Source of the DNA: Chrysoperla carnea
Lineage: Eukaryota; Arthropoda; Insecta; Neuroptera; Chrysopidae
Assembly (NCBI RefSeq): GCF_905475395.1
Contig: NC_058337.1
Span: forward strand, 138,515,172-138,579,171
Direction: 5' to 3'
DNA length: 64,000 nucleotides
Shown here: piece by piece, positions 25,993-61,626 of the stretch
Layout of the letters: each line of letters opens with the position of its first letter
How positions within the stretch are numbered: the first letter of the stretch is position 1
Notes under the pieces: model-generated
Database searches by the model: none
What the model was told of the DNA's origin: nothing
The model's input: the letters and a program-made list of their open reading frames with translations, nothing else
Program-made: the position numbers and the translations under genes

Positions 25993-27170
25993 AGTAGAAG
26001 AGTCATGTATGTTTCAGCGCAAAAGAATGGTACACTTTTCAAAAAAGGGCAAACCTAGGTGAATGTTGGAAACCTCGGTTGAATGCGAAGTTGGAGGGGA
26101 TAGATGACGTCATTGACCAATAGTAAATCAAGATGGCGTTGGGAGGTGTGGTGGGGGTGAGGAATGACATAAACGGGGCTTGACCAATAGTGATGGGCGT
26201 GGTTGACAGGAGTGTGTTTCTTGGAAGTGAGGCTTAAAGGGGGCGGGAATTGGACGTTAGATGAGATAATCGAGCCCACTTTCAACCCCAAAGTATGGTA
26301 CACTTTTCCAAAAAGGGCAAACCTAGGTGAATGTTGGAAACCTCGGCATTGACCAATAGTAAATCAAGATGGCGTCGGGAGGTGTGGTGTTGGGGAATAA
26401 TGGCTGCCTAAGCATTGATGACGTCATTGGCTTTGACCAATAGTGGCGGAGAGTGAACGGGGGGCGGGACGTTGACATTAGTCAGCAATTTTCAAGAATA
26501 TGTTAATTTGACCTTGAAAAATATTGTAATTTGACACTTTATACATGATAAAATTCAAAACACGTGACCGGATGTTAATATTTTTTTATGATTAAGCAAT
26601 GTAATATGACACTTGAAATTTACATAATAAAAATACATGTTCAAACTTGTTTGAATGGACTTTGATCTTAAAATAATTTTACACGTGTCAGCAATTTTCA
26701 AGAATATGTTTGACCTTGAAAAATATGATATCATCATCTTGTAACAAGTTCAAACTTGTTTGAAATAATTTTACATGTGTCAAAACACGTGACCGGATGC
26801 TAATATTTTTTTATGATTAAGCAATGTAATATGACACTTGAACGTGTTAGATAATAATTTGCAAATCTGAATTCCAAGAAAAGAATATTATGAGTCTGCA
26901 ATTTTCAAGAATATGTTGAAATAGATATCATCTAACCTTGAAAAATATTGTAATTTGACACTTTAAGTATACATGATAAAATTCAAGATACGTGACCGGA
27001 TGTTAATATTTTTTTATTGAATCAGCAATATAATATGACACTTGAAATTTACATAATAAAAATACATGTTTAAACTTGTTTGAACTTGTTTAAACTTGTC
27101 TGAATTCCAAGAAAAAACAATTAGTTTGAATTACGATTATAAAAATATCAAATTACAAGATTTGACCTTG
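25993..27170 (+). repeat. Polinton 1 left terminal inverted repeat
   Basis: The outer ~500 bases are GC-rich and contain repeated CCAAT-type ATTGGTCAA or TTGACCAAT, CRE-type TGACGTCA (near 26104 and 26418), GC boxes (GGGGGCGGG) and the motif GGGCAAACCTAGGTGAATGT. The inner part is AT-rich with TTCAAACTTGTTTGAA palindromes and CACGTG boxes. The inner limit is judged where similarity to 36440-36500 stops. Just inside the terminus, about 30 bases differ from the other three ends. Confidence 0.85.
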
Positions 27171-27373
27171 AAAAATATGATATCATCATCCTGTTACAAG
27201 TTCAAACTTGTTTGAATAAAAATACATGTTCAAACTTGTTTGAACATGTTTAAACTTGTTTGAACATGTTTAAACTTGTTTGAATCGCATTAGATCTTCA
27301 AATAATTTTACACGTGTTATGAGATTAGATAATAATTTCTGCTGGTGGGGGATTTTTGGAGTGGTGGTAATCA

Positions 27374-27380
27374 TATAAAA
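27374..27380 (+). promoter_or_regulatory. TATA box of the 27440 gene
   Basis: TATAAAA lies 60 bases before the ATG at 27440, just inside the TIR, followed by GGCGCTCGACATTACGGTAATATCAG. The same arrangement occurs in the mirrored position of Polinton 2 (near 59390). It is a eukaryotic, not bacterial, core promoter layout. Confidence 0.6.
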
Positions 27381-27439
27381 AAGGCGCTCGACATTACGGT
27401 AATATCAGTTTTCATTAAATATTCATAATATTAATCAAA

Positions 27440-27802
27440 ATGAATAGAGCAGAATTAAAATTATTAGATAGTTGTTTAGTGCGACCATGCATAAAAATGG
27501 ACGACTTGCCACTGAAAAAAAAATTAAAAATACTAAAAATGGAGCGGATTCTAACGATACATGGGCCATCAATAAAAGTTTTACTGGATATAAGCCTAGA
27601 TGGTACAGAAAACGAGGGGGTTTTTCTACCATCTAGGTTTGCAGTGTTGACGGACAACATGATTAAATTATTTAACACAAAACCGGGGTATTTGAGGGTG
27701 GAGGAGAAAATTGGAAGAAGTCACCAACTGAGACTGCGCCTATTCGAAGACGATGGTGATAGTGATGATGACTATGTTCAAGAACATCAAAATTTTTTTT
27801 AA
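27440..27802 (+). CDS. Polinton small protein of unknown function (120 aa)
   Basis: Not recognised. A basic-to-acidic protein: Lys/Leu-rich middle (MDDLPLKKKLKILKMERIL), HGPSIKVLLDISLDGTE, FLPSRFAVLTDNMIKLF, an Arg/His-rich stretch and an acidic end (EDDGDSDDDY). The compact beta-like pattern and acidic tail would fit a single-strand DNA-binding protein, but that is only a guess. A shorter copy with an internal N-terminal deletion and another C-terminus is at 59001-59330 in Polinton 2, which shows the core is conserved. Confidence 0.65.
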   Translation: MNRAELKLLDSCLVRPCIKMDDLPLKKKLKILKMERILTIHGPSIKVLLDISLDGTENEGVFLPSRFAVLTDNMIKLFNTKPGYLRVEEKIGRSHQLRLRLFEDDGDSDDDYVQEHQNFF

Positions 27803-27925
27803 CAAATCATTCCTATATTGAATTTTATTACTGCAAGATATATATATATATTATTGTTATTGTTATAAAAAATTGTAAAGTTTATGTTTTTGATATTTAA
27901 AAAAAAAAATAATACTAAATAAATT

Positions 27926-28598
27926 ATGGATATTTTTGTAAAAAATGGTGTTTATTTTAATTCATTACAATTATGGGGTACAATGTCGCTACAAAATCAT
28001 ATTGATCTGTTTCAAAATTCGGAGATGATTTACCCAGAATATTTTAATGTGAGTATTGTTTGATAAGATCTGTTTAGAAAATTGTAGCCAAATATTTTTA
28101 TAGATGGAATTTTATCAACTTATGGAGGCATGTCGTTGGAGTATACCTACAAAGTTAATCGACACATTACGGTATTCTTATTTAGAAGTTGATGATTGCT
28201 TTCATATTGCTGCATTTATAGTAAGAAATTGTTTGGATGCAATCTTATTTGTAAATTATGCGAAAAAGTTCAACTACTTTAAAAGAGATTTCAATCAGTT
28301 TGAAATATTACTAAATGAATGTTGTGATGATCTTACTCATGGAAGTAACTTGAGAAAAAATTGGGGTACATACGATATTCGCCGAAAACAATGGATTGGT
28401 GATAGTGCTAGACATGATGAGAGAATGTTTTTATGGTATGAACAAATAGATCCTAAAATTCTCTGTAGAATGCTATACCAACAAATGGATGGTGGAAATA
28501 TACCGAAATGGTTCGAGCCATGGATATGTGCTACAAATTGTAATGAAATAGACAGATGTGATTGTGGAAGAAATAGTGATGATCATGATTGTATATAG
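27926..28598 (+). CDS. Two-exon Polinton gene of unknown function (205 aa)
   Basis: Exon 1 is 27926-28048 (41 codons from ATG), then an intron of 55 bases with GTGAGT donor and TTTTTATAG acceptor, then exon 2 28104-28598 in phase 0. The protein is rich in Trp, Cys and Asp (EACRWSIPTKLIDTL, WIGDSARHDERMFLWYEQ, EPWICATNCNEIDRCDCGR), with a Cys cluster at the C-terminus that may bind zinc. No family recognised. It is absent from Polinton 2. Confidence 0.6.
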
Positions 28599-28929
28599 AA
28601 ATAAAAACATGAATATAATTGTCTATGATAAGTTTTTTTTTAAAATGTGTTTGTATTTACAATAAAAAACACCTATAATTTAATTAATCATTGTTTTGTT
28701 TTATCTATGAAATGACCTCACCACCTTATTTTCAGGTTATAAATACACCTTGTTTGTGATAATTATATTCGCACCATCAAGTAATTTTGAGTAATAAACA
28801 TGAATCAAAAAACATTTGTATTACAACAATATTTTTATATTGTTTTGTGTTAGTTAAAAATTGCTTCAATAAAATTTCATGAACCTAGTCTAATATATAT
28901 TCATATTAAAAAAATACATTTCCTTTTTT

Positions 28930-29190
28930 AAAACACAAATATGTTCACAAAAGCGGTCCACTATGACAAAATTTTTTTGTTACAAGTATGTTCGCAAAAA
29001 CTTTCCACTATAAAAGGAGACTTTTTTTATCAATATATGAATCATGTAAAGAGTCGAACCCTAACCACGTGACTTTAACGTTAGATCCATGTTTAGCTAA
29101 GACCTTTTCCACTAAATAAATGTTTGGATCGTGAACTTTTTGTAATTCTTCAGCATAGAAACCACCCTTTATATCTTTGTTGTTGTAATC
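28930..29190 (-). pseudogene. Integrase C-terminal chromodomain remnant
   Basis: On the minus strand the sequence reads GGFYAEELQKVHDPNI-like, then VEKVLAKHGSNVKV and a GYD/RLF region close to the one at 31065, but broken by stops. This is the chromodomain tail that follows Polinton retroviral-type integrases. The catalytic core is absent. It is the inverted partner of 31065-31290. Confidence 0.6.
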
Positions 29191-29273
29191 CTTTAAAATT
29201 TACATTTTAAAAAAAATTTACAGAAAAAAATTATTATTATGAATCTGAAAAAACACACAAAGTATTGGTGACA

Positions 29274-29931
29274 CTACAGTTCAATAAATTCATCAAATCC
29301 ATTCCTATAACGACCTGCATTCATAGAGAAATTTTTCATTATTACAACAAATCCATTTGGTGAACTCCAACAATGTCGATATAAATCATGAAATTTTTGA
29401 AAATTCATATCAGAGCCAACATGATTGTAGAATATGTGTTTTAGATTCATTTCATCCGTTTTGAATAGCACCAAGCAATTAACATTGCCCCTTATGTTAT
29501 GCTTTAGAACACGTGCGTAGCTCTGACATAGGTAGAAACAATCAATTTTTCGATGACGATCCATACTAAAGTATTCTCTACTTCTCTGTTGTGAATGACA
29601 GCTCACATCATCAAAAATGAAAAGACTTTTTTCTCGAGCTTCATTCAGACTAGGAATTTCACTAGTATCACTAAGTGGAAAAATAGCCAACCCCTTTCAC
29701 TAATTTTAAAGTCTCTTCTAGTAATTGATATTTCGGTTGGTAAACAGATTTACTGTACACATAAATGTTTTCAAAGCGTAAACCATTTTCATCTTAAATT
29801 AAATTCAACATAACATTGGTTTTACCACAACCACTAGGGCCACATATAATTGTTCATAGTGAATCTGAAAATAGACGACCATGATATGTTTGTGTGTCTG
29901 TATTTTCTGGTAATAAACACTCAGAGCAGGT
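29274..29931 (-). pseudogene. Polinton FtsK/HerA-type packaging ATPase, broken
   Basis: Walker A GPSGCGKT (near 29825-29848) with hydrophobic strand IICG before it; Walker B LFIFDDVSCHSQQ (near 29600-29630); a sensor-like HNIRGNVNCLVLFK region and the typical end SMNAGRYRNGFDEFIE. Two in-frame stops flank the Walker A and a frameshift near 29690 separates the halves. Such ATPases pump DNA into capsids in Polintons and related viruses. No copy was found in Polinton 2. Confidence 0.8.
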
Positions 29932-29976
29932 TGTTGTTTATGAAAATGCAATGTAACTAAGACTAAAATTTTAATA

Positions 29977-30099
29977 CAACCCAGAGCACTTTACGATACA
30001 GATCTACATGCGTATGCTAAACAATTTAAAATTCCGTATTTTTGTGGTGTTTTTATGTGTGACACCCTACCTAAAAGATCATATTTAAACAATAAATAA
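29977..30099 (+). pseudogene. Polinton cysteine protease N-terminal remnant
   Basis: About 40 codons: LYDTDLHAYAKQFKIPYF, then CGVFMCDTLPKRSY. The pattern (acidic start, KI-x-x-F, GVFM-x-D-x-LPK) resembles the start of the adenain-like proteases of Polintons. The catalytic His, Asp and Cys regions are missing. Assigned from pattern alone. Confidence 0.45.
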
Positions 30100-30262
30100 T
30101 ATTAAAAAATTAGATGATTATGTATTTTGTTTTAATATAAAATTATAATTTTTTTAAATAAAATTTTTTTTATCTAATCTAAAGTACAAGTTGATTTATT
30201 ATATTCCATATAAAGAGCATATTATATGGGTTGATTGATGATGCTTGTTAGATTTGAAAACC

Positions 30263-30690
30263 AGACCTCTTTCTAAACAGACCAGTATTAAACAGGTTAA
30301 AACCAGTATTAAACAGATACAGACCAGTATTAAACAGGTTAAAACCAGTATAAAACAGGTACAGACCAGTATTAAACAGGTTAAAACCAGTATTAAACAG
30401 GTTAAAACCAGTATTAAACAGGTCAAAACCAGTATTAAACAGGTCAAAACCAGTATTAAACAGGTTAAAACCAGTATTAAACAGATACAGACCAGTATTA
30501 AACAGATACAGACCAGTATTAAACAGGTCAAAACCAGTATTAAACAGGTCAAAACCAGTATTAAACAGGTCAAAACCAGTATTTAACAGGTTAAAACCAG
30601 TATTAAACAGATACAGACCAGTATTAAACAGGTCAAAACCAGTATAAAACAGCTACAGACCAGTATTAAACAGATACAGACCAGTTTTAA
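30263..30690. repeat. 21-bp minisatellite, about 20 units
   Basis: Unit ACCAGTATTAAACAGGTTAA plus A, with variants (GTCAAA, ATACAG). The period of 21 bases is maintained, so both strands stay open: TSIKQVK heptads on plus, CLILVLT on minus. A longer array of the same unit, inverted, is at 57545-58508. Confidence 0.9.
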
Positions 30691-31012
30691 ACAGGTTTTC
30701 ACCGATTTTACTCCGACTTTCGCCGATTTTACTCCGGTTTTACTCTGGTTTTCACCGATTTTGCTCCGACTTTCGCCGATTTTACTCCGGCTTTCACCGA
30801 TTTTACTCTGGTTTTACTCCGGTTTTCACCGATTTTGCTCCGACTTTCGCCGATTTTACTCCGGTTTTACTCCAGTTTTCACCGATTTTGCTCCGACTTT
30901 CGCCGATTTTACACCGGTTTTACTCCGACTTTCGCCGATTTTACTCCGGTTTTACTCCAGTTTTCGTCGATTTTGCTCCGACTTTCGCCGATTTTACTCC
31001 GGCTTTTTAATT
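30690..31012. repeat. CCGATTTTACTCCGG tandem repeat block
   Basis: Degenerate array of TTTTACTCCGG, TTTTCACCGA and TTTTGCTCCGACTTTCGCC words, with higher-order units of about 40 bases. On the plus strand it reads FTDFAPTFADFTPV. The inverted counterpart is at 56757-57183. Confidence 0.85.
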
Positions 31013-31064
31013 TTTGATAAAGTTATTATAAACTTGTTATTTAATTATATTTGTTTTCCTCAAG

Positions 31065-31252
31065 TAATGGGTGGTTTCTATGCCGAAGAATTACCAAAAG
31101 TTCACGATCCGAACATTTATTTAATGGAAAAGGTCTTAGCTAAACGTGGATCCAAAGTTAAAGTCCGGTTAGGGTACGACTCTTTACACAATTCATATAT
31201 TGACAAAAAAGTCTCCTTTTATAGTGGAACGTTTTTGCGAACATACTTGTAA
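31065..31252 (+). pseudogene. Integrase chromodomain remnant (best preserved)
   Basis: MGGFYAEELPKVHDPNIYL, then MEKVLAKRGSKVKVR, then GYDSLHNSYIDKK: the short chromodomain-like tail of Polinton integrases, in one open frame of about 60 codons. No integrase catalytic core precedes it; the repeat block is directly upstream. Confidence 0.65.
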
Positions 31253-31364
31253 CAAACAAAAATTTGTCATAGTGGACCGCTTTTGTGAACATACTTGTGA
31301 TTTATAAAAAAATAAAAAATATCACATTGTAAAAATATTATTTTTATTGTAAAATTTTATCTCT

Positions 31365-31545
31365 AACATATAAAAACAGAGTTTTATTATAATAATATTT
31401 AAAAAATATATATTTATAAATTATCGAAAATACATTATAATTATTATTCTGAAAAGTATAAAAACAGAGTTGTATTATAATAATATTTAAAAAATATATA
31501 TTTATAAATTATCGAAAATACATTATAATTATTATTCTGAAAAGT
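31365..31545. repeat. Tandem duplication of about 90 bp
   Basis: ATAAAAACAGAGTTTTATTA through TTATTATTCTGAAAAGT occurs twice in direct tandem (31365-31455 and 31456-31545), nearly identical. The second copy includes the 3' end of the 31532 gene. The Polinton 2 counterpart near 54715-54790 has one copy. Confidence 0.75.
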
Positions 31546-31954
31546 GTCCATTATCATCATCATCTTTCTTCATAAGATAATTTTCAATTATTTCTTTCAC
31601 TTGAACATAGTCGGATAACTCGTTTGATGTAAATACACTGTAGTAAGATTGTTCAAAAATGGATAGTCCTACAATTCCATCTTTTTGTCCAGAGTGGATA
31701 TTTTTTAAAATCCAGTTCCAAATTTGTTTGTCTTCATCGTCTGATGATGGGGAAAATTTCACTTCTAAGTCCATTTGTTCTACCTTATCAATAAGGTAGT
31801 TTAAAGTTTCCGGTCGACCACATTTAATTGCCATATTAACCAATGTTTTAAAATACTTTGTTAACACATTGTTTAAAGTACTTAAACTACAATTATCTTT
31901 AATCATATTAACAATACAGTTGTTATCACTATTATGATTACCAAAGTCTTGCAT
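31532..31954 (-). CDS. Polinton conserved acidic protein (140 aa)
   Basis: Not recognised. Conserved in both elements, downstream of polB on the same strand. The N-terminal half is helical (STLNNVLTKYFKTLVNMAI, RPETLNYLIDKVEQMD), the middle is acidic (SSDDEDKQ), and the end has GIVGLSIFEQSYYSVF and an Asp run. In Polinton 2 the Asp run is longer. Conservation of the frame in both copies suggests a real protein. Confidence 0.65.
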   Translation of the reverse strand: MQDFGNHNSDNNCIVNMIKDNCSLSTLNNVLTKYFKTLVNMAIKCGRPETLNYLIDKVEQMDLEVKFSPSSDDEDKQIWNWILKNIHSGQKDGIVGLSIFEQSYYSVFTSNELSDYVQVKEIIENYLMKKDDDDNGHFSE

Positions 31955-32194
31955 TTTTGTATGTTTAAACTAACACTAAATTGTTTTCTACAATAATTCT
32001 ACCTAACTATCAGTTTTTTTTTACACCCCCACCACTACTCTATCAATTGTTCATGCGCACTACTCTATCAATTGTTTGTACACCTATCACAATACCGAAC
32101 CACTTTGAGGATCATCACAACAGCAGGACACATTTCTGAAACAACAGCAAAAATTAGCTAAATATTAAAAACAAAAAATATAAAATACTTACAC

Positions 32195-35100
32195 TCAACA
32201 AATAATGCTATAGTGGCCCCATGGTTTTGTTTCACATGAATTGTGAGTAATGTATCGTTTTTGGTCAAATGGTGATAAGCCCACTTTCTGCTGTTTGATG
32301 GTATGTAAGCGGTGTCGCTTGGATTGGATGCTTTGCTGAACATGGTAAAAGTTACGGTTCTCAAGCAAACACCGCTTATAGTCCTCAAAAGTAAGTTTTC
32401 GGATAGCTGACTTCTTGAGACCCTTGGATCGTTTAGTCTCTTTTTTATTTTGCACCCGAATAGCATACATTTTGCTACGTAATCCGACAAATTCTAGCAT
32501 AACATCACCATTATTTTCATCGGACATTAAACCCTTGACTTTCTTATTACGTAGTGGCATACCATAGATGTTGTCGGGTGCATAGTCAGCCGTATCAAAA
32601 CGATTAATATCCTGTTTCATGACCTCATAGACGTCAGTATTTTTCACGCTATAAATTAGACTATCGGTGTCTGTGTATAATAACCTGACATTTGTGGGGT
32701 TGTACCGTTGGTACATGTAGTTGTAGTGGAAGTCATACACAAACGTTTTCGATATGTCTAAAATTGTGAAGCCTATGTAGATGGGTTTGTTGAAACGTAT
32801 CTGTGTTTTTTTCATTTCAACAATACTGACGTCATTGTCGAGCACCATCATACTGTGAAAATTGGGATTGGCAATTAATTTCTTCACACCATGTTTTCCA
32901 TCCCAATTTTTTCGTATGTACACAACCCGATGTTTCCTCACATTCTCCATGGTTTTACCGAAGATGGCATTAATCATGAGTTTGAATAATGCTTTTTCAA
33001 ACTCATTTGAGGCGTTCTTGCGCATCTCGGTATTGAAATCAATATATGGTTTCAACCATGCAGATTGATCGAATTGTAACACACGGTGGTATTTTGTTAC
33101 CTTAACACCGAGTTGTGTATACAGTTTTAAATTCCTGTAGTGCACGACATAGTTGGTCTTATTGTAAAGGGTTGACAGAAGATATTTTTGTTTTGATCCA
33201 GGTGGTTTCGTTGTCTCCGGACATGGCGGTAAATCGCTAAAGTTATCATGTAGATGTTGGGGTATTTCAAGGTCTACTTCTAAAATGTACCCGACTGGTG
33301 AATCATCTGCAACATCCTCGATGTTTGGTGTGTCGACCCACTTAAAATTTCCTGTTGGTAGGTATCCACACATTGCTGCACCATATAGGTTCACCACATC
33401 GTAATACATAAGGTAGACATCTTCTTGAGTTTTATCATACCCCTCTTCCATGTACTTATTGTTTGCCTTAGCATAGCGATTAGAACATTGACTTACACCG
33501 CCTCTGATTCCTTTCTCGATAAACAACAAGTCATCAATATCCGTGAACAATTCCAATTTGATATTGGTGTATTTCAACATGGCGCTCCACGTATAGCCAG
33601 GAAGTGTGTAATAGTGACTAGGATCAAGACTATAGCTATGAATACAAGTGTTACGGAAATTTTCAAAAATATCCGCAAGTAGTAACACATCAGTTTTCAT
33701 ATACAGGTCTGAATAATCACCTAGTGTATGTAAATTGAATGTGTTCCATACCTGTATCGCATGGTTATAATCCTCATCCGTTATGTGTTCATCTGTTAAC
33801 ACACTGTAGAACGCCTCCTTTGGTGGTAATTTTGTCTCTTGGAGACGTCCCCAGCTACTCATGTATTCATATGGAAATACACCTTTTCTCGTCAGCAATT
33901 GAAATTGTTCATCATTACTGACCTATAAAAAATTAAAAAGCAAATTACAACCCTGTATTAAAAATTATTTATTTTTTATCATTTACCTCTTTATGTAAAA
34001 TGGATTTTTTATCATTATCTAAATATGAGGCCAGATTTTCCAACTTGTCTGCGAGAAATCGGAAGGAATCAATGAATCTTAATTGAATGTCCGAGACGTG
34101 CTTTGTGAAACTGATGTACTTTTCTTTGTTGATGGGCAACACATCAACTTGACCGTCGATTTCCGTCAGCAGAGCTTCAATAATAAAATGCGAATCGTAT
34201 CCACTTAAGTTGTGCATCACAACAGGTATCACCCTTGAATCTTGATAATGCAGATTACAAAATTGGTGTGCTGCTCCACGGTAGATACCTAAAATAGATT
34301 AATATAAAATTAGATGAAATTAAAAAAAAAATAAATAACCTGCATTACCTGTGCGATGTGAATGGTCGCGAACACGTATGGAATTGGATACGAAATCTTT
34401 ACCACAAATGTGACACTTCTCTGCTGACATAAAATCCAGTTCTTGTTCGACGGTGAGCGGATACATTGGTTTAACGTGTTTTATTTTTTGCTCTAATGAG
34501 TACGCTACTTGTTCCAGTTCATGAACAAACCACTTGACACAATCAGCACCACGGTATGCCTTATAAAACGATTGGTTGGGATCATGGGTACAATGAACAT
34601 AGTAACCTACACTGTAGGGTACATGTTTTTGAATATTTTTTGTATAAGACCCATGATCCATTTCCATGTCTTCATGATGTTGTGGTACCAATAGTGCCTC
34701 AAAGTCAGCGTACACCATATACTCAACACGTTCCTTGCTGTTGAAATCTTTGAACTCAACGAACCGCTCGTCATCAGTTTCAGGCATTCGTACCCGCACT
34801 GCTTCTTTCTCACCACAATTTACTGAATGCTGTTGGAGTTTGACTTCTGTAGCAAAATAGTTGAGACATCGATCACATAAATAAATTTGGCGGCGGTGTT
34901 TTGTTACACCCGATCGACACAACTTTGCTAAATTTTTTATCCAGCAAAAGTGGTGACTGTTCCCATTCTCCACAGCCAGTAGATGAATTTTCTGCCCCGC
35001 AGTGTTCGAACTAACGCGTACAGGGAAAATTTCTAAATCACGTAGAAACGTATCTTTGTAGCCGTACACGTTAATCGATAGCTGCGGGTTCATCTTTTCA

Positions 35101-36077
35101 AATTTATTAATTTGATCCAGAGACATGGGAAACTTTAATCCATCATATTTTAAATGATATTTATAGTGCGGGTACTTAGTTAAACGTTGAGGATCCTTTT
35201 CAACCGGGTAAAGTGCTGACATTATCGACCATAAAAAGCAATGTTGGTCTTTATTCTGGACATTAATCACAGCTTTTCTACATTTAATTGCAGATGGTAG
35301 TTCGCAAAATGTTCCAGCTGTGATCGGAGAGTACTTATTCATGTGGACTCGAATATTTATGATCATGTCAAGAGCCCAACCGCTATCGCGTTCCTGGAAT
35401 TCTTCCAATTTTTTCAGCAAATAGTTTTTGACATGATCATTGTACCACTCCTGCATGTCCGTTGTCAGATACATTTCCTTGGCCGACGTTATAAATGTTT
35501 TCAAATCCTCCTCTTTGGTGGTGGGCTTAATGAAATTGCCCGTGAACATAATATACACCTGAAAAAAAATCTCATTAGACTATTTAAATTATAAATCTTA
35601 AATTTTACTTACCTTGAGGGGATGCTTCACTAGCTCACGCCGAACGTGTCTTCTAAACATTGGAAATGCCCGGTTGAAAAATATATTTGGATCTTTATAA
35701 TCCAAATTGGTAATCATACCAGTCTTCACCCTGCCCTGGTGGTGGGTTTCAATTGTCTCCCAGATTAGATGTCGATTTTGTTTTTTGGTGACACCACCAC
35801 CTTGCTTAACTAAATCTAATCGCAGTCGGTGAAGTTGCCGCTGGTATGATTTACAAAGTCCAATATTAGCTTCAAGACGCAGAGGATTTTCTTTCTTTAA
35901 CATCAACATCTTTTTGAATAAGCGGATGTTCTGCTTATTAAGTATCATCCATCGCTCAGCTTCCTCCACCGTCTTGATGAGCCTCAACGCTCTCTCCACT
36001 TTCTTCATCATATCAGTGCTACCACCTTGAGGTACCACGTTTATCGTCTGCATAACATTTTGTTCGTAGGTGTCCAT
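32195..36077 (-). CDS. Polinton protein-primed DNA polymerase B, 4 exons
   Basis: Exons (minus): 36077-35613, 35558-34349, 34288-33987, 33922-32195; introns of 54, 60 and 64 bases with GTAAGT/GTAATG/GTAAAT donors and CAG/TAG acceptors in phases 0, 1, 0. The joined frame is 1,234 codons and open. Features in order: basic N-terminus; a Cys/His domain ([24 protein letters not shown]), possibly OTU-like; zinc-finger-like CDRCLNYF; exonuclease I YADFEALL; endonuclease-VII-like CHICGKDF with DHSHRTG; exonuclease [12 protein letters not shown]; exonuclease [12 protein letters not shown]; polymerase [11 protein letters not shown]; polymerase [15 protein letters not shown]; polymerase [10 protein letters not shown]. 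All catalytic acids are present. Confidence 0.9.
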
Positions 36078-36286
36078 CTTTCAAAAAATTATATTTAAGT
36101 TTCACAATAATATTTAAAAAATTTTGCACTTACCGTTATATTTTCAAATACTAAGCAAAATATACGTTACCGAACGTTCAACACTAAAGTTAACTTACAA
36201 CTGAGTAATATTTGTTTTTTGTATAAAATATATAGACTAAGTTTAGAATAATAAATATACCAAAACAAAAAAAAAAAACAAAAAAA

Positions 36287-36287
<1 letters not shown>

Positions 36288-36317
<30 letters not shown>
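36288..36317. repeat. (AAT)n microsatellite, about 10 units
   Basis: An AAT run preceded by A-rich tracts in the 5' untranslated region of polB. The equivalent site in Polinton 2 (49861-49944) has about 28 units. Confidence 0.9.
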
Positions 36318-36321
<4 letters not shown>

Positions 36322-36404
36322 TAACGTAAAAAATATATGCGGAAAAAACTAACTGAAGCAAAGGTGAATTTCAAAAGAGATACTTCAACAGCTACGTACA
36401 TCAC

Positions 36405-36412
36405 TTTTTATA
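36405..36412 (-). promoter_or_regulatory. TATA box of Polinton 1 polB
   Basis: TATAAAAA on the minus strand, just inside the TIR and about 330 bases before the polB ATG. The same box is at about 49771 in Polinton 2. A probable 5'-untranslated intron (CG/GTAAGT to TTGAAAG) ends directly at the ATG. Confidence 0.6.
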
Positions 36413-49944: not shown

Positions 49945-49945
<1 letters not shown>

Positions 49946-53100: not shown

Positions 53101-54022
53101 ACAACTCGGTGTTAAGGTAACAAAATACCACCGTGTGTTACAATTCGATCAATCTGCATGGTTGAAACCATATATTGATTTCAATACCGAGATGCGCAAG
53201 AACGCCTCAAATGAGTTTGAAAAAGCATTATTCAAACTCATGATTAATGCCATCTTCGGTAAAACCATGGAGAATGTGAGGAAACATCGGGTTGTGTACA
53301 TACGAAAAAATTGGGATGGAAAACATGGTGTGAAGAAATTAATTGCCAAACCCAATTTTCACAGTATGATGGTGCTCGACAATGACGTCAGTATTGTTGA
53401 AATGAAAAAATCACAGATACGTTTCAACAAACCCATCTACATAGGCTTCACAATTTTAGACATATCGAAAACGTTTGTGTATGACTTCCACTACAACTAC
53501 ATGTACCAACGGTACAACCCCACAAATGTCAGGTTATTATACACAGACACCGATAGTCTAATTTATAGCGTGAGAAATACTGACGTCTATGAGGTCATGA
53601 AACAGGATATTAATCGTTTTGATACGGCTGACTATGCACCCGACAACGTCTATGGTATACCACTACGTAATAAGAAAGTCAAGGGTTTAATGTCCGATGA
53701 AAATAATGGTGATGTTATGCTAGAATTTGTCGGATTACGTAGCAAAATGTATGCTATTCGGGTGCAAAATAAAAAAGAGACTAAACGATCCAAGGGTCTC
53801 AAGAAGTCAGCTATCCGAAAACTTACTTTTGAGGACTATAAGCGGTGTTTGCTTGAGAACCGTAACTTTTACCGTGTTCAGCAAAGCATCCAATCCAAGC
53901 GACACCGCTTACATACCATCAAACAGCAGAAAGTGGGCTTATCACCATTTGACCAAAAACGACACATTACTCACAATTCATGTGAAACAAAACCATGGGG
54001 CCACTATAGCATTATTTGTTGA
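50141..54022 (+). CDS. Polinton protein-primed DNA polymerase B, 4 exons
   Basis: Exons 50141-50605, 50660-51869, 51929-52230, 52295-54022 (465, 1210, 302 and 1728 bases, identical in length to element 1); introns 54, 59 and 64 bases in phases 0, 1, 0. The joined frame is 1,234 codons and open. The same domain order and all exonuclease and polymerase motifs as in element 1. Exon 4 differs by few residues, but exon 2 (about residues 200-400) has a cluster of changes. The endonuclease-VII-like Cys/His motif is split by intron 2. Just after the stop there is another donor-like GTAAGT with a TTGTTTCAG acceptor near 54081, perhaps a 3'-UTR intron. Confidence 0.9.
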
Positions 54023-54262
54023 GTGTAAGTATTTTATATTTTATGTTTTTAATATTTAGCTAATTTTTGCTGTTGTTTCAGAAATGTGTCCTGCTGTTGT
54101 TGTGATGATCCTCAAAGTGGTTCGGTATTGTGATAGGTGTACAAACAATTGATAGAGTAGTGCGCATGAACAATTGATAGAGTAGTGGTGGGGGTGTCAA
54201 AAAATTGATAGTTAGGTTGAATTATTATAGAAAACAATTTAGTGTTAGTTTAAACATACAAA

Positions 54263-54712
54263 ATGCAAGACTTTGGTAATCATAATAGTGATAACAACTG
54301 TATTGTTAATATGATTAAAGATAATTGTAGTTTAAGTACTTTAAACAATGTGTTAACAAAGTATTTTAAAACATTGGTTAATATGGCAATTAAATGTGGT
54401 CGACCGGAAACTTTAAACTACCTTATTGATAAGGTAGAACAAATGGACTTAGAAGTGAAATTTTCCCCATCATCAGACGATGAAGACAAACAAAATTGGA
54501 ACTGGATTTTAAAAAATATCCACTCTGGACAAACAGATGGAATTGTAGGACTATCCATTTTTGAACAATCTTACTACAGTGTATTTACATCAAACGAGTT
54601 ATCCGACTATGTTCAAGTGAAAGAAATGACTGAAAATTATCTTATGAAGAAAGATGATGATGATGATGATGATGATGAGGATGATGATAACAATAGACAC
54701 TTTTCAGAATAA
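54263..54712 (+). CDS. Polinton conserved acidic protein (149 aa)
   Basis: Counterpart of 31532-31954, nearly identical except near the end, where a GAT repeat encodes a longer Asp run (about 9 Asp plus EDDDNN). No family recognised. Conservation and position after polB suggest a common function in both elements. Confidence 0.65.
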   Translation: MQDFGNHNSDNNCIVNMIKDNCSLSTLNNVLTKYFKTLVNMAIKCGRPETLNYLIDKVEQMDLEVKFSPSSDDEDKQNWNWILKNIHSGQTDGIVGLSIFEQSYYSVFTSNELSDYVQVKEMTENYLMKKDDDDDDDDEDDDNNRHFSE

Positions 54713-54714
54713 TA

Positions 54715-55370
54715 ATTATAATGTATTTTCGATAATTTATAAATATACATTTTTTAAATATTATTATAATACAACTCTGTTTTTATATGTTATAGATAAA
54801 ATTTTATAATAAATAGTTTTACATCCTTAACTTTTATTTTTAATCATTTAAAACCCTTTTTTTGTTTCATTTTTGTTGGTTGACTTGCGTTTGTCTTTTA
54901 TCCATCTATTAATTTATATTTTATACCAATGTCAACATATAGTAACATGGAATCGGGGTTTTTAGTCATGAAACTTTTAGTTCAGCTTTATAATAATTTT
55001 GTTCTTCTCGGTCCATTTTTATATTTTATTTTTTTCATGAAAAATTGAACTGTTTTATTATGTAAAATAAACTAATATTTATCGTTATTAACTTTTTTAT
55101 ATGATTATCCGCCACAAAGAAATTATCTCATAGCACGTGTCGAATTATTCTTAGACCAAAACTCAGTTGAAACTTATTTTCAATTTTACCGTCAATTGCA
55201 CTCTCTCTTGACACTTCTGCCAGCATGGTGTAATCTGATATTTTTATTTTTATCAAATTAGATAACTCAATACAGATAATGTTACTTGACACTGTTATAT
55301 AAATATGCATGATGAAACTTGTTCGAAGACACCGAATGCCGGTCTAAAATAAAATAATAAGACCCGCGAC
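54715..55370. other. AT-rich interior, no gene seen
   Basis: Follows the acidic protein gene. It starts with the ~90-base region duplicated in element 1, then unknown AT-rich DNA with no convincing frame. Near 55100-55370 it begins to show TIR-like words (CACGTG, GACCGG). Confidence 0.45.
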
Positions 55371-55745
55371 CGGTTGTAAATATTTTTTTAATGAAATAAG
55401 ATGATTCGGCAAATGTAATTTGACACTTTAAATATACATGATAAAATCTAAGACACGTGACCGGATGTTAATATTTTTATAATAGAATATGATGATTCAG
55501 CGATGTAATATGTCACTTGAAATTTACATGATAAAAATCGTTCAAGGACACGTGACCGGATGTTAATATTTTTTTATTGAATCAGCAAATATTTTTTTTT
55601 TTTTTTTTTTTTTTTTTAATGAAATAAGATGAATCAGCAGTGTAATATGACACTTGAAATTTACATAATAAAAATACATGTTTAAACTTGTTTGATCTTA
55701 AAATAATTTTACACGTGTTAGATAATAATTTGCAAGTCTGAACAA
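55370..55745. repeat. Internal copy of TIR satellite units
   Basis: Three divergent copies of the TIR unit core (GACACGTGACCGGATGTTAA, AATATGACACTTGAAATTTA) within the element interior, plus a poly-T of about 26. It suggests an embedded end of another Polinton or an ectopic duplication. Confidence 0.7.
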
Positions 55746-55751
55746 GTCTGA

Positions 55752-55860
55752 ATTTTTAAAATCTATGTATTTTTATTTTTAAATATTTATAATACAACAC
55801 TGTTTTTTTAAATAAGAAACTTACAATAAAAATAATATTTTTACAATGTGAAATTTTTTA
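55752..55860. repeat. Left arm of internal inverted repeat
   Basis: AAATCTATGTATTTTTATTT to AAAATAATATTTTTACAATG is nearly the reverse complement of 58800-58905. The two arms enclose 3 kb with the poly-A, the minisatellites and the PolB and integrase relics. Confidence 0.7.
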
Positions 55861-56550
55861 TTTCATACCACTCTAATTTATTCAAAATTATTATGGAATG
55901 TATCTGGTGTTGTGATTTATCATACATTTATCCTCATTCTTAATTCTGAAAATCATATCGTTAGATTTGTATTTAGAGTCAGTGTGGTGAAATTTTAGTT
56001 CAAAGAACAAAAAAAATATTAAAATTTATGTAAAATTAATAGTTTCTTAGACATTTTTCATCAAAAACATCAAAGTAAACCATTTTTCATGCAAATTTTA
56101 TGTTTCTTCCACCTTATTGTCACTCACAAAAATAATAAGAAACAAATAATCGGGATTTACAACATAATGTATCATTGAAACACAATAGCTACTCCTTTTT
56201 TATGTGAAGTTTTTGTTTTTGAATGTTTTTTGTCATTTGAATAAATAATATGACACAAAACTAGAAAAATTATTACAACCATCAATTACTACCTGTAAAG
56301 TTGTCAATTATGTCTAAATTATTTGCACATTTACAAACTAAATTATCATTGAAACACAGAAAAATGTGGATATTTTGTGGAAAATTTGGGTTTTTTCCTA
56401 ACTTTTTTGTCATTTTAAAAATACTATGAACTGAACTTATGGTAGAATATCAATTTTACCTATTAAGAGGCAACTAAATACCTAAAACACAAATTTATTT
56501 ATATATTTTAATGAAATTTTGTTTTTTTCAACCTAGTATTGAAAACTTAT
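55861..56550. other. AT-rich interior, no gene seen
   Basis: No convincing frame or repeat; about 75-80% A+T with scattered stops on both strands. Not present in element 1. Confidence 0.4.
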
Positions 56551-56551
56551 G

Positions 56552-56605
<54 letters not shown>
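56552..56605. repeat. Poly-A tract of 54 bases
   Basis: Uninterrupted A run followed by a short frame (SNSDRNILIDKLRRLHSTN). It might mark a retrocopy tail or simply a slippage-prone run. Length in the assembly is likely unreliable. Confidence 0.9.
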
Positions 56606-56610
<5 letters not shown>

Positions 56611-56756
56611 TCCAATAGTGATCGTAATATATTAATTGATAAATTAAGAAGGCTACATTCTACAAACATCGGAAGAGAAATACTATCTATAATCCTTTAC
56701 TTGAGGAAAACAAATATAATTAAATAACAAGTTTATAATAACTTTATCAAAAATTA

Positions 56757-57183
56757 AAAAGCCGGAGTAAAATTGGTGAAAGCCGGAGTAAAACCGGAGT
56801 AAAATCGGCGAAAGTCGGAGCAAAATCGGTGAAAGCCGGAGTAAAACCGGAGTAAAATCGGCGAAAGTCGGAGCAAAATCGGTGAAAACCGGAGTAAAAC
56901 CGGAGTAAAATCGGCGAAAGTCGGAGTAAAATCGGTGAAAACCGGAGTAAAACCGGAGTAAAATCGGCAAAAGTCGGAGTAAAATCGGTGAAAACCGGAG
57001 TAAAACCGGAGTAAAATCGGCGAAAGTCGGAGTAAAATCGGTGAAAACCGGAGTAAAATCGGCAAAAGTCGGAGTAAAATCGGTGAAAACCGGAGTAAAA
57101 CCAGAGTAAAATCGGTGAAAACCGGAGCAAAATCGGTGAAAACCGGAGTAAAATCGGCGAAAGTCGGAGCAAAATCGGAATAA
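56757..57183. repeat. CCGGAGTAAAATCGG tandem repeat block
   Basis: The inverted counterpart of 30690-31012 (words CCGGAGTAAAA, TCGGTGAAA, TCGGCGAAAGTCGGAGCAAA). The unique flank at 56690-56756 also matches 31012-31055 in reverse, so the whole segment was inverted as a unit. Confidence 0.85.
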
Positions 57184-57242
57184 AATTGATAAAATGAATA
57201 CATGTATGTAGATCTAATGAATTTTATATAGCAAAATACACC

Positions 57243-57545
57243 TCGTTTTCAACCATTACTCACATGATGATGCTGCATTTGAACATGGGAATATTGTAAA
57301 AGAATCTAATAATATTGGGTTAACAAAAGAGGCTAAGGGAGTTAAAAGGTCGGTTCTTAGTACGAAAATAACATTTGAAGATTAGTTGAATGTTTGGAGA
57401 ACTTTAAAGAGATATCGGTTAATCAAAATCTTATTAAATCTGAAAAACTTAAACTTTATACTCAAACTCAAACAAAAATTGCTCTTAGCCTTTATGATGA
57501 CAAGCGATACATTATACTTGGTTCCTATAATACACTACCTCGGGG
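57243..57545 (+). pseudogene. C-terminal relic of a different Polinton PolB
   Basis: Reads HDDAAFEHGNIVKESN, EAKGVKRSVLSTKITFED, frameshift, then NQNLIKSEKLKLYTQTQTKIALSLYDDKRYI and LGSYNTLPRG. This aligns in pattern with the C-terminus of the intact PolB ([37 protein letters not shown]) but is clearly another lineage. The rest is replaced by minisatellite. Confidence 0.7.
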
Positions 57546-58508
57546 TCTGGTCTGTATCTGTTTAATACTGGTTTTGGCCTGTTTAATACTGGTCTGTATC
57601 TGTTTAATACTGGTTTTTGACCTGTTTAATACTGGTCTGTATCTGTTTAATACTGGTTTTGACCTCTTTAATACTGGTTTTGACCTGTTTAATACTGGTC
57701 TGTATCTGTTTAATACTGGTTTTGACCTGTTTAATACTGGTCTGTATCTGTTTAATACTGGTTTTGACCTGTTTAATACTGATCTGTATCTGTTTAATAC
57801 TGGTTTTGACCTGTTTAATACTGGTCTGTATCTGTTTAATACTGGTTTTGACCTGTTTAATACTGGTCTGTATCTGTTTAATACTGGTCTGTATCTGTTT
57901 AATACTGGTTTTAACCTGTTTAATACTGGTCTGTATCTGTTTAATACTGGTTTTAACCTGTTTAATACTGGTTTTGACCTGTTTAATACTGGTTTTGACC
58001 TGTTAAATACTGGTCTGTACCTGTTTAATACTGGTTTTAACCTGTTTAATACTGGTTTTGACCTGTTTAATACTGGTCTGTATCTGTTTAATACTGGTTT
58101 TGACCTGTTTAATACTGGTCTGTATCTGTTTAATACTGGTCTGTAGCTGTTTAATACTGGTCTGTATCTGTTTAATACTGGTCTGTATCTGTTTAATACT
58201 GGTTTTGACCTGTTTAATACTGGTTTTGACCTGTTTAATACTGGTCTGTATCTGTTTAATACTGGTCTGTAGCTGTTTAATACTGGTCTGTATCTGTTTA
58301 ATACTGGTCTGTATCTGTTTAATACTGGTTTTAACCTGTTTAATACTGGTTTTGACCTGTTTAATACTGGTTTTGACCTGTTAAATACTGGTCTGTATCT
58401 GTTTAATACTGGTTTTAACCTGTTTAATACTGGTTTTGACCTGTTTAATACTGGTCTGTATCTGTTTAATACTGGTTTTAATCTGTTTAATACTGGTCTG
58501 TATCTGCT
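57545..58508. repeat. 21-bp minisatellite, about 46 units
   Basis: Unit CTGTTTAATACTGGTTTTGA plus C with GTCTGTAT variants, the inverse of 30263-30690. Blocks of several units are themselves repeated (for example 58080-58250 against 58250-58400), showing recent expansion. Confidence 0.92.
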
Positions 58509-58695
58509 TACAAACCCAAGAACATATTTACTAAAGGACTACAACAACGATGATATAAAGGGTGGTTTTATGCCGAAGAATTACAAAAAGTTTACGATCC
58601 AAACATTTATTTAGTGGAAAAGGTCTTAGCTCCAAATTTAAAGTCCGGTGGTTAGGGTTCGACTCTTTACATGACTCATATATTGATAAAAAATA
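58509..58695 (+). pseudogene. Integrase tail and chromodomain relic
   Basis: TNPRTYLLKDYNNDDIKGGF, one base missing, then AEELQKVYDPNIYL and VEKVLA, then stops. The region joins the integrase core to its chromodomain in Polintons. It is more complete at its left than the copy at 31065. Confidence 0.65.
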
Positions 58696-58799
58696 GTCTC
58701 CTTTTATAGTGGAACGTTTTTGCGAACATACTTGTAACAAACAAAAATTTGTCATAGTGGACCGCTTTTGTGAACATACTTGTGATTTATAAAAAAATA

Positions 58800-58905
58800 A
58801 AAAATTTCACATTGTAAAAATATTATTTTTATTGTAAGTTTCTTATTTAAATAAACAGTGTTGTATTATAAATATTTAAAAATAAAAATACATAGATTTT
58901 ATAAA
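58800..58905. repeat. Right arm of internal inverted repeat
   Basis: AAATTTCACATTGTAAAAAT to AAATACATAGATTTTATAAA, reverse complement of 55752-55860 with few differences. Related sequence also follows the integrase remnant in element 1 (31310-31360). Confidence 0.7.
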
Positions 58906-59000
58906 ATGATTTTTTATTCAGAAATTTCTGATGTATTTAATACAAAACGTCTGTTGTATTAGAATTACCCATGGGATTAATTCGCTTGGTTGATCAGGCT

Positions 59001-59330
59001 CTATTTGTTCAACATTGGGTTGATCTGGTTGCCATCTTCGTTAACATCATCTTCGAATAGGCGCAGCGTTAATTGGTGACTTCTTCCAATTTTCTCCTCC
59101 ACCCTCAAATACCCCGGTTTTGTGTTAAATAATTTAATCATGTTGTCCGTCAACACTGCAAACCTAGATGGTAGAAAAACTCCCTCGTTTTCTGTACCAT
59201 CTAGGCTTATATCCAGTAAAACTTTTATTGATGGCCCATGTATCGTTAGAATCCGCTCCATTTTTAGTATTTTTAATTTTTTTTTCAGTGGCAAGTCGTC
59301 CATTTTTATGCATGGTCGCACTCTATTCAT
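59001..59330 (-). CDS. Polinton small protein, variant copy (109 aa)
   Basis: Counterpart of 27440-27802. The N-terminus lacks about ten residues (MNRVRPCIKMDD) and the C-terminus after LFEDD is different (NEDGNQINPML). The core is the same. TATA-like sequence lies just upstream near 59390. Function unknown. Confidence 0.6.
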   Translation of the reverse strand: MNRVRPCIKMDDLPLKKKLKILKMERILTIHGPSIKVLLDISLDGTENEGVFLPSRFAVLTDNMIKLFNTKPGYLRVEEKIGRSHQLTLRLFEDDVNEDGNQINPMLNK

Positions 59331-59499
59331 TTTGATTAATATTATGAATATTTAATGAAAACTGATATTACCGTAATGTCGAGCGCCTTTTTTATATGAT
59401 TACCACCACTCCAAAAATCCCCCACCAGCAGAAATTATTATCTAACACGTGTAAAATTATTTTAAGATCTAATGCGATTCAAACAAGTTTAAACATGTT

Positions 59500-61626
59500 C
59501 AAACAAGTTTGAACATGTATTTTTATTCAAACAAGTTTGAACTTGTAGCAGGATGATGATATTATATTTTTCAAGGTCAAATCTATTTCAACATATTCTT
59601 GAGAATAGCTGACACGTGTAAAATTATTTTAAGATCAAAGTCGATTGAAACAAGTTTGAACATGTATTTTTATTATGTAAATTTCAAGTGTCATATTACC
59701 CTGCTGATTCAATAAAAAAAATTATTAACATCCGGTCACGTGTTTTGACACATGTAAAGTCGATTCAAACAAGTTTGAACTTGTAGCAGGATGATGATAT
59801 CATATTTTTCAAGGTCCAATCTATTTCAACATATTCTTGAAAATTGCTGACACGTGTAAAATTATTTTAAGATCAAAGTCCATTCAAACAAGTTTGAACA
59901 TGTATTTTTATTATGTAAATTTCAAGTGTCATATTACATCGCTGACTCAATAAAAAAAAAAAATATTAACATCCGGTCACGTATCTTGAATTTTATCATG
60001 TCTACTTAAAGTGTCAAATTACAATATTTTTCAAGGTTAGATGATATCTATTTCAACATATTCTTGAAAATTGCAGACTCATAATATTCTTTTCTTGGAA
60101 TTCAGACTTGCAAATTATTATCTAACACGTTCAAGTGTCATATTACATTGCTTAATCATAAAAAAAAATATTAACATCCGGTCACGTGTTTTGACATATG
60201 TAAAATTATTTCAAACAAGTTTGAACTTGTTACAAGATGATGATGATATCATATTTTTCAAGGTCAAATTAACATATTCTTGAAAATAGCTGACACGTGT
60301 AAAATTATTTTAAGATCAAAGTCCATTCAAACAAGTTTGAACATGTATTTTTATTATGTAAATTTCAAGTGTCATATTACATCGCTGACTCAATAAAAAA
60401 AAAAAAATATTAACATCCGGTCACGTATCTTGAATTTTATCATGTCTACTTAAAGTGTCAAATTACAATATTTTTCAAGGTTAGATGATATCTATTTCAA
60501 CATATTCTTGAAAATTGCAGACTCATAATATTCTTTTCTTGGAATTCAGACTTGCAAATTATTATCTAACACGTTCAAGTGTCATATTACATTGCTTAAT
60601 CATAAAAAAAATATTAACATCCGGTCACGTGTTTTGACACATGTAAAATTATTTCAAACAAGTTTGAACTTGTTACAAGATGATGATATCATATTTTTCA
60701 AGGTCAAATTAACATATTCTTGAAAATAGCTGACACGTGTAAAATTATTTTAAGATCAAAGTCCATTCAAACAAGTTTGAACATGTATTTTTATTATGTA
60801 AATTTCAAGTGTCATATTACATTGCTTAATCATAAAAAAAAATATTAACATCCGGTCACGTATCTTGAATTTTATCATGTATATTTAAAGTGTCAAATTA
60901 CAATATTTTTCAAGGTTAAATTAACATATTCTTGAAAATTGCTAACTAATGTCAACGTCCCGCCCCCCGTTCACTCCCCGTCAAGCACCACTATTGGTCA
61001 AAGCCAATGACGTCATCAATGCTTAGGCAGCCATTATTCTCCTCCACCACACCTCCCGACGCCATCTTGATTTACTATTGGCCAATGTCGAGGTTTCCAA
61101 CATTCACCTAGGTTTGCCCTTACGTCCCGCCCCCTGTTCACTCTCCGCCACTATTGGTCAAAGCCAATGACGTCATCAATGCTTAGGCAGCCATTCCTTC
61201 CCCCACCACACCTCCCGACGCCATCTTGATTTTTACAGCGCTACTATTGGTCAATGATGTCCCCCCTCCAACTTCGCATTCAACCGAGGTTTGCCCTTTT
61301 TGGAAAAGTGTACCATTCTTTGGGGTTGAAAGTGGGCTCGATTATCTCATCTAACGTCCAATTCCCGCCCCCTTTAAGCCCCACTTCCAAGAAACACACT
61401 CCTGTCAACCACGCCCATCACTATTGGTCAAGCCCCGTTTATGTCATTCCTCACCCCCACCACACCTCCCAACGCCATCTTGATTTACTATTGGTCAATG
61501 ACGTCATCTATCCCCTCCAACTTCCGAGGTTTCCAACATTCACCTAGGTTTGCCCTTTTTTGAAAAGTGTACCATCCGGGGTTACTTGAGGTCAAACTGT
61601 GCCAGGAGTGACTTGACTCTTCTACT
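59500..61626 (-). repeat. Polinton 2 right terminal inverted repeat
   Basis: Inner part 59.5-60.9 kb with about five ~230-base satellite units (TTCAAACAAGTTTGAA, CATCCGGTCACGT); outer part 60.95-61.63 kb mirrors 48440-49130, with TGACGTCA near 61008, 61158 and 61498. It has more units than the left repeat. Confidence 0.85.

What the first reader, a model, noticed from the sequence alone, without database searches (positions are those of the whole stretch)
25993..61626. Two eukaryotic Polintons inside rickettsial DNA
Seen: two elements with AG...CT termini, long inverted repeats, perfect 6-bp target duplications (TATCAA, ACTATT) and intron-containing PolB genes, each splitting a rickettsial gene. 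Known: Polintons are eukaryotic, integrate by a retroviral-type integrase and make 6-bp duplications. Inference: this is a bacterial segment moved into an animal nuclear genome and then used as transposon target; a chance assembly join would not give matched target duplications twice.
Basis: partly seen in the sequence, partly recalled or inferred. Interest (0 to 1): 0.95.

Follow-up and report, generated by a model that had tools for sequence, protein, structure and literature searches.

The report
Lacewing transposons inside transferred Rickettsia DNA
A piece of a bacterial symbiont's chromosome appears to have moved into the genome of a green lacewing, decayed there, and then been hit twice by the lacewing's own large Polinton transposons; this is a clean example of a known kind of event, not a new biological system.

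Summary
E1 (25993-38055) and E2 (48440-61626) have AG...CT ends and perfect 6-bp duplications. E1 splits an IS200-like tnpA; an uninterrupted copy lies in the same window. E2 splits uvrD, uninterrupted in Rickettsia sp. MEAM1. PolB is in pieces with GT-AG boundaries; E1's match a gene model of the lacewing Chrysoperla carnea at 97-99% with the same joints at two of three introns. The rickettsial DNA is decaying: of 17 genes compared with MEAM1, 9 are interrupted (2 only at the tail), among them secD, yajC and ppa; the nearest comparison genome has 0 of 7, others 0-2 of 8-11. Best reading: Rickettsia DNA entered the lacewing nucleus, lost function, and was then a target for host Polintons. E2 probably came after decay began, since its 709-bp arms are identical. 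No intact integrase or capsid gene was found. New member of a known kind.

The parts
1..18959 (.). Bacterial block rich in transposase genes, taken as Rickettsia-derived: bacterial gene families and short repeats shared with the Rickettsia loci; no long alignment to the loci held
18960..25722 (.). Decaying Rickettsia-derived DNA colinear with MEAM1 apart from an IS insertion
21051..21653 (+). Uninterrupted IS200-like (Y1_Tnp) copy; empty-site control for E1
21678..24271 (+). yajC, secD and sco1, each frameshifted relative to MEAM1 and seven other Rickettsia loci
24964..25488 (+). ppa (inorganic pyrophosphatase) with an internal stop
25723..25992 (+). Left part of the split IS200-like element, ending with TSD TATCAA (25987-25992)
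25993..38055 (-). E1: degenerate Polinton, 12,063 bp, AG...CT ends
29277..29907 (-). E1 packaging ATPase in two overlapping pieces in different frames (about 29277-29696 and 29680-29907), together matching residues 27-238 of a 238-aa homologue
30281..31007 (.). E1 21-bp and related tandem arrays (E2 equivalents 56758-57186 and 57547-58497)
32195..33922 (-). E1 PolB last exon piece (TDTDS motif)
33969..34298 (-). E1 PolB exon piece
34320..35579 (-). E1 PolB exon piece
35598..36077 (-). Possible first PolB exon of E1 (or a separate gene); no match to P0005, P0006 or P0008
38056..38394 (+). TSD TATCAA (38056-38061) and right part of the split IS200-like element
38395..48439 (+). Rickettsia-derived block: murJ, traX-like, 6-O-methylguanine methyltransferase-like, DNA alkylation repair, PCuAC, broken rnd and DUF155 genes, GCV_T-like, glycosyltransferase; ends with TSD ACTATT (48434-48439)
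48101..48439 (+). uvrD 5' part, cut by E2
48440..61626 (+). E2: degenerate Polinton, 13,187 bp, terminal arms identical for 709 bp
50141..54022 (+). E2 PolB pieces (50141-50620, 50660-51907, about 51928-52239, about 52295-54022)
57379..57546 (+). Fragment of the C-terminal end of a second, different PolB inside E2
61627..63248 (+). TSD ACTATT (61627-61632) and uvrD 3' part, which also has a 7-bp deletion relative to MEAM1

Best explanation
A segment of the chromosome of a Rickettsia symbiont (MEAM1/Diachasma-type clade by MurJ) became part of the genome of the green lacewing Chrysoperla carnea. Without selection its genes collected frameshifts and stops. Later, two copies of a lacewing Polinton family integrated into it. 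Each integration would be a retroviral-type staggered joining that duplicates 6 bp of target: one went into a rickettsial IS200-like element, the other into uvrD. Because the two copies carry PolB (E1 also a broken packaging ATPase gene) but no recognisable intact integrase, the integrase was probably supplied in trans by complete relatives. Shown: the element boundaries, target duplications, both empty sites, lacewing PolB identity and introns, lacewing assembly, gene decay. Inferred: nuclear location, order of events, integrase in trans.
For: Perfect 6-bp duplications at both elements, with both empty sites found. E1's PolB pieces match C. carnea LOC123301296, on a 76,427,138-bp contig, at 97-99% with the same joints at two introns; E2's match at 95-99.8%; the other 119 of 120 listed hits are 60% or less. 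E1, E2 and this protein form a 100/100 clade among 22 rows. Assembly G000 has contigs of 139,979,878 and 76,427,138 bp, equal to chromosomes 1 and 5 of inChrCarn1.1, and a sampled G000 contig encodes a histone H4-like sequence (named by recall). The assembly is from HiFi reads polished with 10X data, so most small indels are unlikely to be read errors (inference). Decay: 9 of 17 genes have an internal frameshift or stop against MEAM1, 2 of these trivial (murJ tail, last codon of a glycosyltransferase); on shared genes the window has 5 of 7 (one of them murJ) and L002 has 0 of 7. Six frameshifts, in yajC, secD, sco1 (two), ccmE and murJ, are private to the window; five were checked against seven outgroups and the ccmE one against L002 alone; those in ccmE and murJ lie near the gene end. 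The ppa stop is absent from all seven. Substitutions on the window branch are shifted to codon positions 1+2: 50:27 against 19:30 on the MEAM1 branch, Fisher P 0.006. E2's identical 709-bp arms against about 8.5 expected differences (bootstrap 2.9-14.3) suggest E2 arrived after decay began.
Against: The scaffold that holds the window was not located (genome search failed in all 22 calls), so a contaminant scaffold left in the lacewing assembly is not excluded by position. No host-bacterium junction outside the Polintons was seen; both window ends look bacterial. The codon-position shift is not significant when polarised with L002 alone (44:73 against 21:52, P 0.27). The lesions in rnd, the DUF155 gene, the hydrolase and uvrD (7-bp deletion) could be compared with MEAM1 only. 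Some comparison Rickettsia also have broken genes in this set: L004 2 of 8, L007 2 of 11, L008 1 of 8. Several genes are still open (traX-like, methyltransferase-like, DNA alkylation repair), so the transfer would be recent. Gene conversion could also keep E2's arms identical.
Confidence: 0.92

Rival explanations
1. The Polintons sit in the chromosome of a living Rickettsia in the lacewing, so a eukaryotic self-synthesising transposon integrated into a bacterial genome.
For: Both window ends look bacterial; from 18960 to 62356 gene order follows about 17.7 kb of MEAM1; several genes are open; C. carnea is known to carry Rickettsia (PMC5557424, abstract and passages).
Against: secD, yajC, ppa and sco1 are broken; PolB has introns of eukaryotic type; the sequence sits in a curated lacewing assembly. 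An unbroken second copy elsewhere could not be searched for.
Confidence: 0.03
2. Assembly chimera: unrelated lacewing and Rickettsia reads were joined.
For: Host and symbiont DNA would be extracted together from a whole insect.
Against: Two independent perfect target duplications, each with a matching empty site, and both elements ending exactly at their inverted termini. Misjoins do not produce these.
Confidence: 0.02
3. A Polinton integrated into rickettsial DNA in the cytoplasm or during transfer, and the joined DNA then entered the nucleus.
For: Nothing here dates E1. Polintons have virus-like genes, here a packaging ATPase remnant.
Against: E2's identical arms suggest a later arrival; ordinary nuclear insertion needs no extra step.
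Confidence: 0.03

Closest known systems
Polinton/Maverick self-synthesising transposons of insects
   Same: 6-bp target duplications and AG...CT termini (family rules recalled), long inverted ends in E2, PolB whose named relatives in the listing are nearly all insect proteins, Pox_A32-type packaging ATPase in E1 (the name of PF04665 is recalled)
   Different: 12-13 kb with 21-bp tandem arrays; no intact integrase, capsid or protease gene found; ATPase gene in two frames in E1 and not found in E2; E1 arms not identical
Nuclear Wolbachia inserts, e.g. Glossina morsitans insertions A-C (PMC3998919, passages read)
   Same: Large rickettsial-order DNA in an insect genome, with many genes broken by small indels and substitutions; a passage says more than 60% of transferred genes on average are pseudogenised
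   Different: Donor is Rickettsia; two Polinton-derived copies with exact empty sites lie inside the insert; the two text passages on transposable elements seen in that paper describe no such insertion
Rickettsia sp. MEAM1 chromosome (Bemisia tabaci symbiont), L001
   Same: Colinear genes over about 17.7 kb of MEAM1, 94-97% nucleotide identity in the aligned blocks
   Different: MEAM1 has open versions of the broken genes, no Polintons in the 21.4 kb held, and lacks the two IS200-like copies at these places

Membership tests
Polinton/Maverick | 6-bp target-site duplication with an empty site | tested here: met
   the 6-bp rule is recalled
Polinton/Maverick | Inverted termini beginning AG and ending CT, long arms | tested here: met
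   E2 709 bp exact; E1 13 bp exact then about 85% over 500 bp. The AG...CT rule is recalled
Polinton/Maverick | Protein-primed family B DNA polymerase | tested here: met
   Many homologues bear PF03175; clade with lacewing P0005. Pfam did not report it on five pieces; protein priming itself not tested
Polinton/Maverick | Packaging ATPase (Pox_A32 type) | tested here: inconclusive
   E1: present in two frames, 13 of 16 homologues carry PF04665; E2: 0 hits in five pieces
Polinton/Maverick | Retroviral-type integrase encoded by the element | tested here: inconclusive
   No integrase in Pfam scans of ten non-PolB ORFs and no other ORF of 120 aa or more outside PolB and repeat arrays. An exon-split integrase is not excluded. 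Hence filed as non-autonomous derivatives
Polinton/Maverick | Major and minor capsid proteins and protease | tested here: inconclusive
   None recognised; no ORF large enough for an intact major capsid protein outside PolB
Nuclear insert of symbiont DNA | Lies in the host assembly | tested here: met
   G000 contig lengths equal inChrCarn1.1 chromosomes; scaffold of the window unknown
Nuclear insert of symbiont DNA | Genes decayed relative to free symbionts | tested here: met
   one of two codon-position tests not significant
Nuclear insert of symbiont DNA | Junctions with host single-copy DNA and host-like read depth | not testable with these tools
   The genome search unavailable in all 22 calls; no reads

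The most novel reading that the evidence does not exclude
Polinton integration into the bacterial DNA may have happened before that DNA was a settled nuclear locus, for instance on extrachromosomal rickettsial DNA in the host cell, or such naked, non-chromatinised foreign DNA may be a preferred Polinton target. Two insertions in 38.75 kb of bacterial DNA would then reflect targeting, and Polintons could help fix transferred symbiont DNA.
Probability: 0.05. Interest if true: 0.8.

Novelty: new member of a known kind. Interest (0 to 1): 0.42.

Why it matters
It is an unusually clean case of layered mobile DNA: a bacterial IS inside a Rickettsia segment inside an insect genome, hit by insect Polintons, with both empty sites available. 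It gives a partial order of events, a sign of recent Polinton activity in lacewings, and a warning that a curated insect assembly can hold symbiont-derived stretches that a scan may take for a bacterial genome. In print, from listings only: Polinton with Neuroptera, 2 papers, neither on this by title and abstract start; Polinton with Rickettsia, 11, none on such an insertion by title and abstract start; Chrysoperla carnea with Rickettsia and horizontal gene transfer, 0; Chrysoperla with Rickettsia and Darwin Tree of Life, 0. The library holds open-licence papers only.

Tried and rejected
Whole-genome search for other copies, for unbroken secD/uvrD and for the scaffold of the window: the genome search failed every time (22 calls). 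Sampling G000 contigs (21 stretches of 10 kb, four wholly and five partly masked; 11 of 600 bases, one masked) met neither the window nor Rickettsia-like DNA; two of the 600-base samples gave weak repeat matches to the elements. Viral contigs: no PolB relative confirmed. PDB: no PolB match. Rfam and tRNA scans of the window: none. Plasmids: no match for one glycosyltransferase gene. I considered the three small pieces around 28924-29195, 31065-31311 and 58532-58796 to be integrase C-terminal (chromodomain-like) remnants, from recall. Pfam (three ORFs overlapping these pieces), PHROGs and PDB (the 29008-29199 piece only) did not support this, so it is not claimed. I first took E1's ATPase as truncated; a piecewise check showed the rest in another frame. 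I considered using E1's unequal arms as a clock and rejected it: the two IS copies differ by only about 1%, so the arms must have been unequal at insertion. MurJ's longer branch in the tree (0.04 against 0.0088 for MEAM1) is not used as decay evidence because its frameshifted tail inflates it. Paper searches with no listing. Papers looked at only as passages and not otherwise used: PMC2836005, PMC12693587, PMC13389597.
Full report
WHAT IS THERE. E1 runs from 25993 to 38055 (12,063 bp) between two copies of TATCAA; E2 from 48440 to 61626 (13,187 bp) between two copies of ACTATT. Both elements begin AGTAGAAGAGTCA and end with its reverse complement. They lie in opposite orientations and share a core with 71 mismatches in 4,803 ungapped columns (69 further gap columns). 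E2's arms are identical for 709 bp; E1's arms are exact for 13 bp and then about 85% identical over 500 bp. So the statement about long inverted repeats holds fully for E2 and loosely for E1.

EMPTY SITES. E1 sits in an IS200-like element (Y1_Tnp). A second copy of that element at 21051-21653 is uninterrupted. It matches E1's two flanks at 98.9% (270 bp) and 98.8% (339 bp), overlapping by exactly the six duplicated bases. E2 sits in uvrD (UvrD N- and C-terminal domains on either side). Rickettsia sp. MEAM1 has the gene uninterrupted with a single ACTATT. These two controls rule out chance and misassembly far better than the duplications alone.

WHOSE ELEMENTS. PolB lies in pieces with GT...AG boundaries at three places. 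The lacewing protein confirms two of the joints; the first piece (159 aa) matched none of the three PolB proteins compared, so it may be a first exon or a separate gene. Five PolB pieces were among the ten element ORFs of the first Pfam scan, and none hit a DNA polymerase family. The search of the largest piece against 5.8 billion proteins scored 7,977 candidates and listed 120 of 7,529 matches: first the lacewing protein LOC123301296 of Chrysoperla carnea (99% over 84% of the query, on a 76,427,138-bp contig), then 119 at 53-60%, mostly ant, wasp, bee and beetle proteins and unnamed metagenome entries, many with PF03175. The lacewing protein is a third copy, not identical to E1 or E2. In a 22-row tree E1, E2 and that protein form a clade with 100/100 support. 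E1 also has a packaging ATPase gene: 16 homologues, 13 with PF04665 (Pox_A32, name recalled). It lies in two overlapping pieces in different frames, together matching residues 27-238 of a 238-aa homologue; none was found in five pieces covering E2. No intact integrase or capsid gene was recognised among the ORFs tested. E2 holds the tail end of a second, different PolB at 57379-57546. Both elements are therefore best called degenerate, non-autonomous Polintons.

WHOSE ASSEMBLY. The window's assembly G000 has contigs of 139,979,878 and 76,427,138 bp. The C. carnea genome note (PMC10116181, whole text read in two parts) gives 139,979,878 bp for its longest scaffold and 76.43 Mb for chromosome 5. 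Two other contigs (C3, C6) are slightly shorter than the published values, so the held version is not identical to the first release. A sampled contig encodes a histone H4-like peptide (recognised by recall). The assembly was made from HiFi reads, polished with 10X data, scaffolded with Hi-C and checked for contamination. I could not learn which scaffold carries the window: the genome search failed in all 22 calls.

STATE OF THE BACTERIAL DNA. 38,750 bp of the window lie outside the two elements. From 18,960 to 62,356 they are colinear with about 17.7 kb of MEAM1 at 94-97% identity in eight aligned blocks. The first 18.9 kb have bacterial gene families and short repeats shared with the Rickettsia loci, but no long alignment to the loci held, so their rickettsial origin is inferred. 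Of 17 MEAM1 genes of at least 100 aa covered to 80% or more, 12 show some frameshift or stop and 9 an internal one. Two of those 9 are trivial (murJ near its end, a glycosyltransferase at its last codon). The clear cases are an alpha/beta hydrolase, yajC, secD, sco1, ppa, rnd and a DUF155 gene (names). uvrD, not among the 17, is split by E2 and also has a 7-bp deletion relative to MEAM1, not polarised. On shared genes, interrupted in the window against the comparison genome: L002 5 and 0 of 7; L003, L005 and L006 5 and 0 of 8 each; L004 5 and 2 of 8; L008 5 and 1 of 8; L007 5 and 2 of 11; the 5 include murJ. Six frameshifts are private to the window: five against all seven outgroups, the ccmE one against L002 only. 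The hydrolase, rnd and DUF155 lesions had no outgroup. Substitutions polarised by unanimous outgroups fall 29, 21, 27 on codon positions 1, 2, 3 in the window and 12, 7, 30 in MEAM1 (151 ambiguous sites dropped), Fisher P 0.006 for positions 1+2 against 3. With L002 alone the direction is the same but P is 0.27.

ORDER OF EVENTS. The excess of window substitutions at positions 1+2 over MEAM1 is 0.0060 per site (44 against 21 in 3,856 sites; block bootstrap 0.0020-0.0101). If E2 had come with the transferred DNA, its arms should differ at about 8.5 places (2.9-14.3); none is seen. P is 0.0002, or 0.06 at the lower bound. Gene conversion or unequal bacterial branches would weaken this. E1 cannot be dated.

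READING. Rickettsia DNA entered the lacewing genome, lost function, and served as an ordinary target for host Polintons. A live Rickettsia carrying Polintons would need to live without unbroken secD, yajC and ppa, or have second copies that I could not search for. A chimera would not produce two duplications with two empty sites. Lacewings of this species group carry Rickettsia (PMC5557424, abstract and passages), so a donor is at hand. Inserts of Wolbachia DNA in insect genomes with widespread pseudogenes are known (PMC3998919, passages), so the kind of event is not new. The exactness of the record, with empty sites and nested bacterial and eukaryotic mobile elements, is what makes it worth keeping. 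After rechecking, confidence was lowered from 0.93 to 0.92, because one PolB joint and the origin of the first 18.9 kb are inferred rather than shown.

Noticed in passing
P0236: A protein of the fungus gnat Pseudolycoriella hygida with MurJ and TraX domains lies on a 192.8-Mb contig, suggesting another nuclear rickettsial-type insert with the same murJ-traX neighbourhood.
   Followed up: no
P0020: A PolB of this family is labelled Enterobacter cloacae complex sp. 2DZ2F20B on a 2,387-bp contig; probably insect DNA in a bacterial assembly.
   Followed up: no
46327-47241: A 457/457-identical tandem duplication (period 458) in the rickettsial part, single in MEAM1; very recent, or an assembly duplicate.
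   Followed up: partly
57379-57546: Tail of a second, divergent PolB inside E2, joined to the 21-bp repeat array; E2 looks like a composite of two Polinton lineages.
   Followed up: partly
29277-29907: E1's packaging ATPase gene is in two overlapping pieces in different frames: a frameshift or a small intron.
   Followed up: partly
30281-31007, 56758-57186 and 57547-58510: Large 21-bp and related tandem arrays in both elements, with open frames on both strands; role unknown.
   Followed up: no
28924-29195, 31065-31311, 58532-58796: Three copies of a short coding-like piece that by recall resembles a Gypsy/Polinton integrase tail; Pfam, PHROGs and PDB searches gave no support.
   Followed up: partly
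G000 contigs C3 and C6: Held lengths (94,120,854 and 38,561,639) are shorter than the published 94.41 and 38.62 Mb, hinting at sequence removed in a later version.
   Followed up: no
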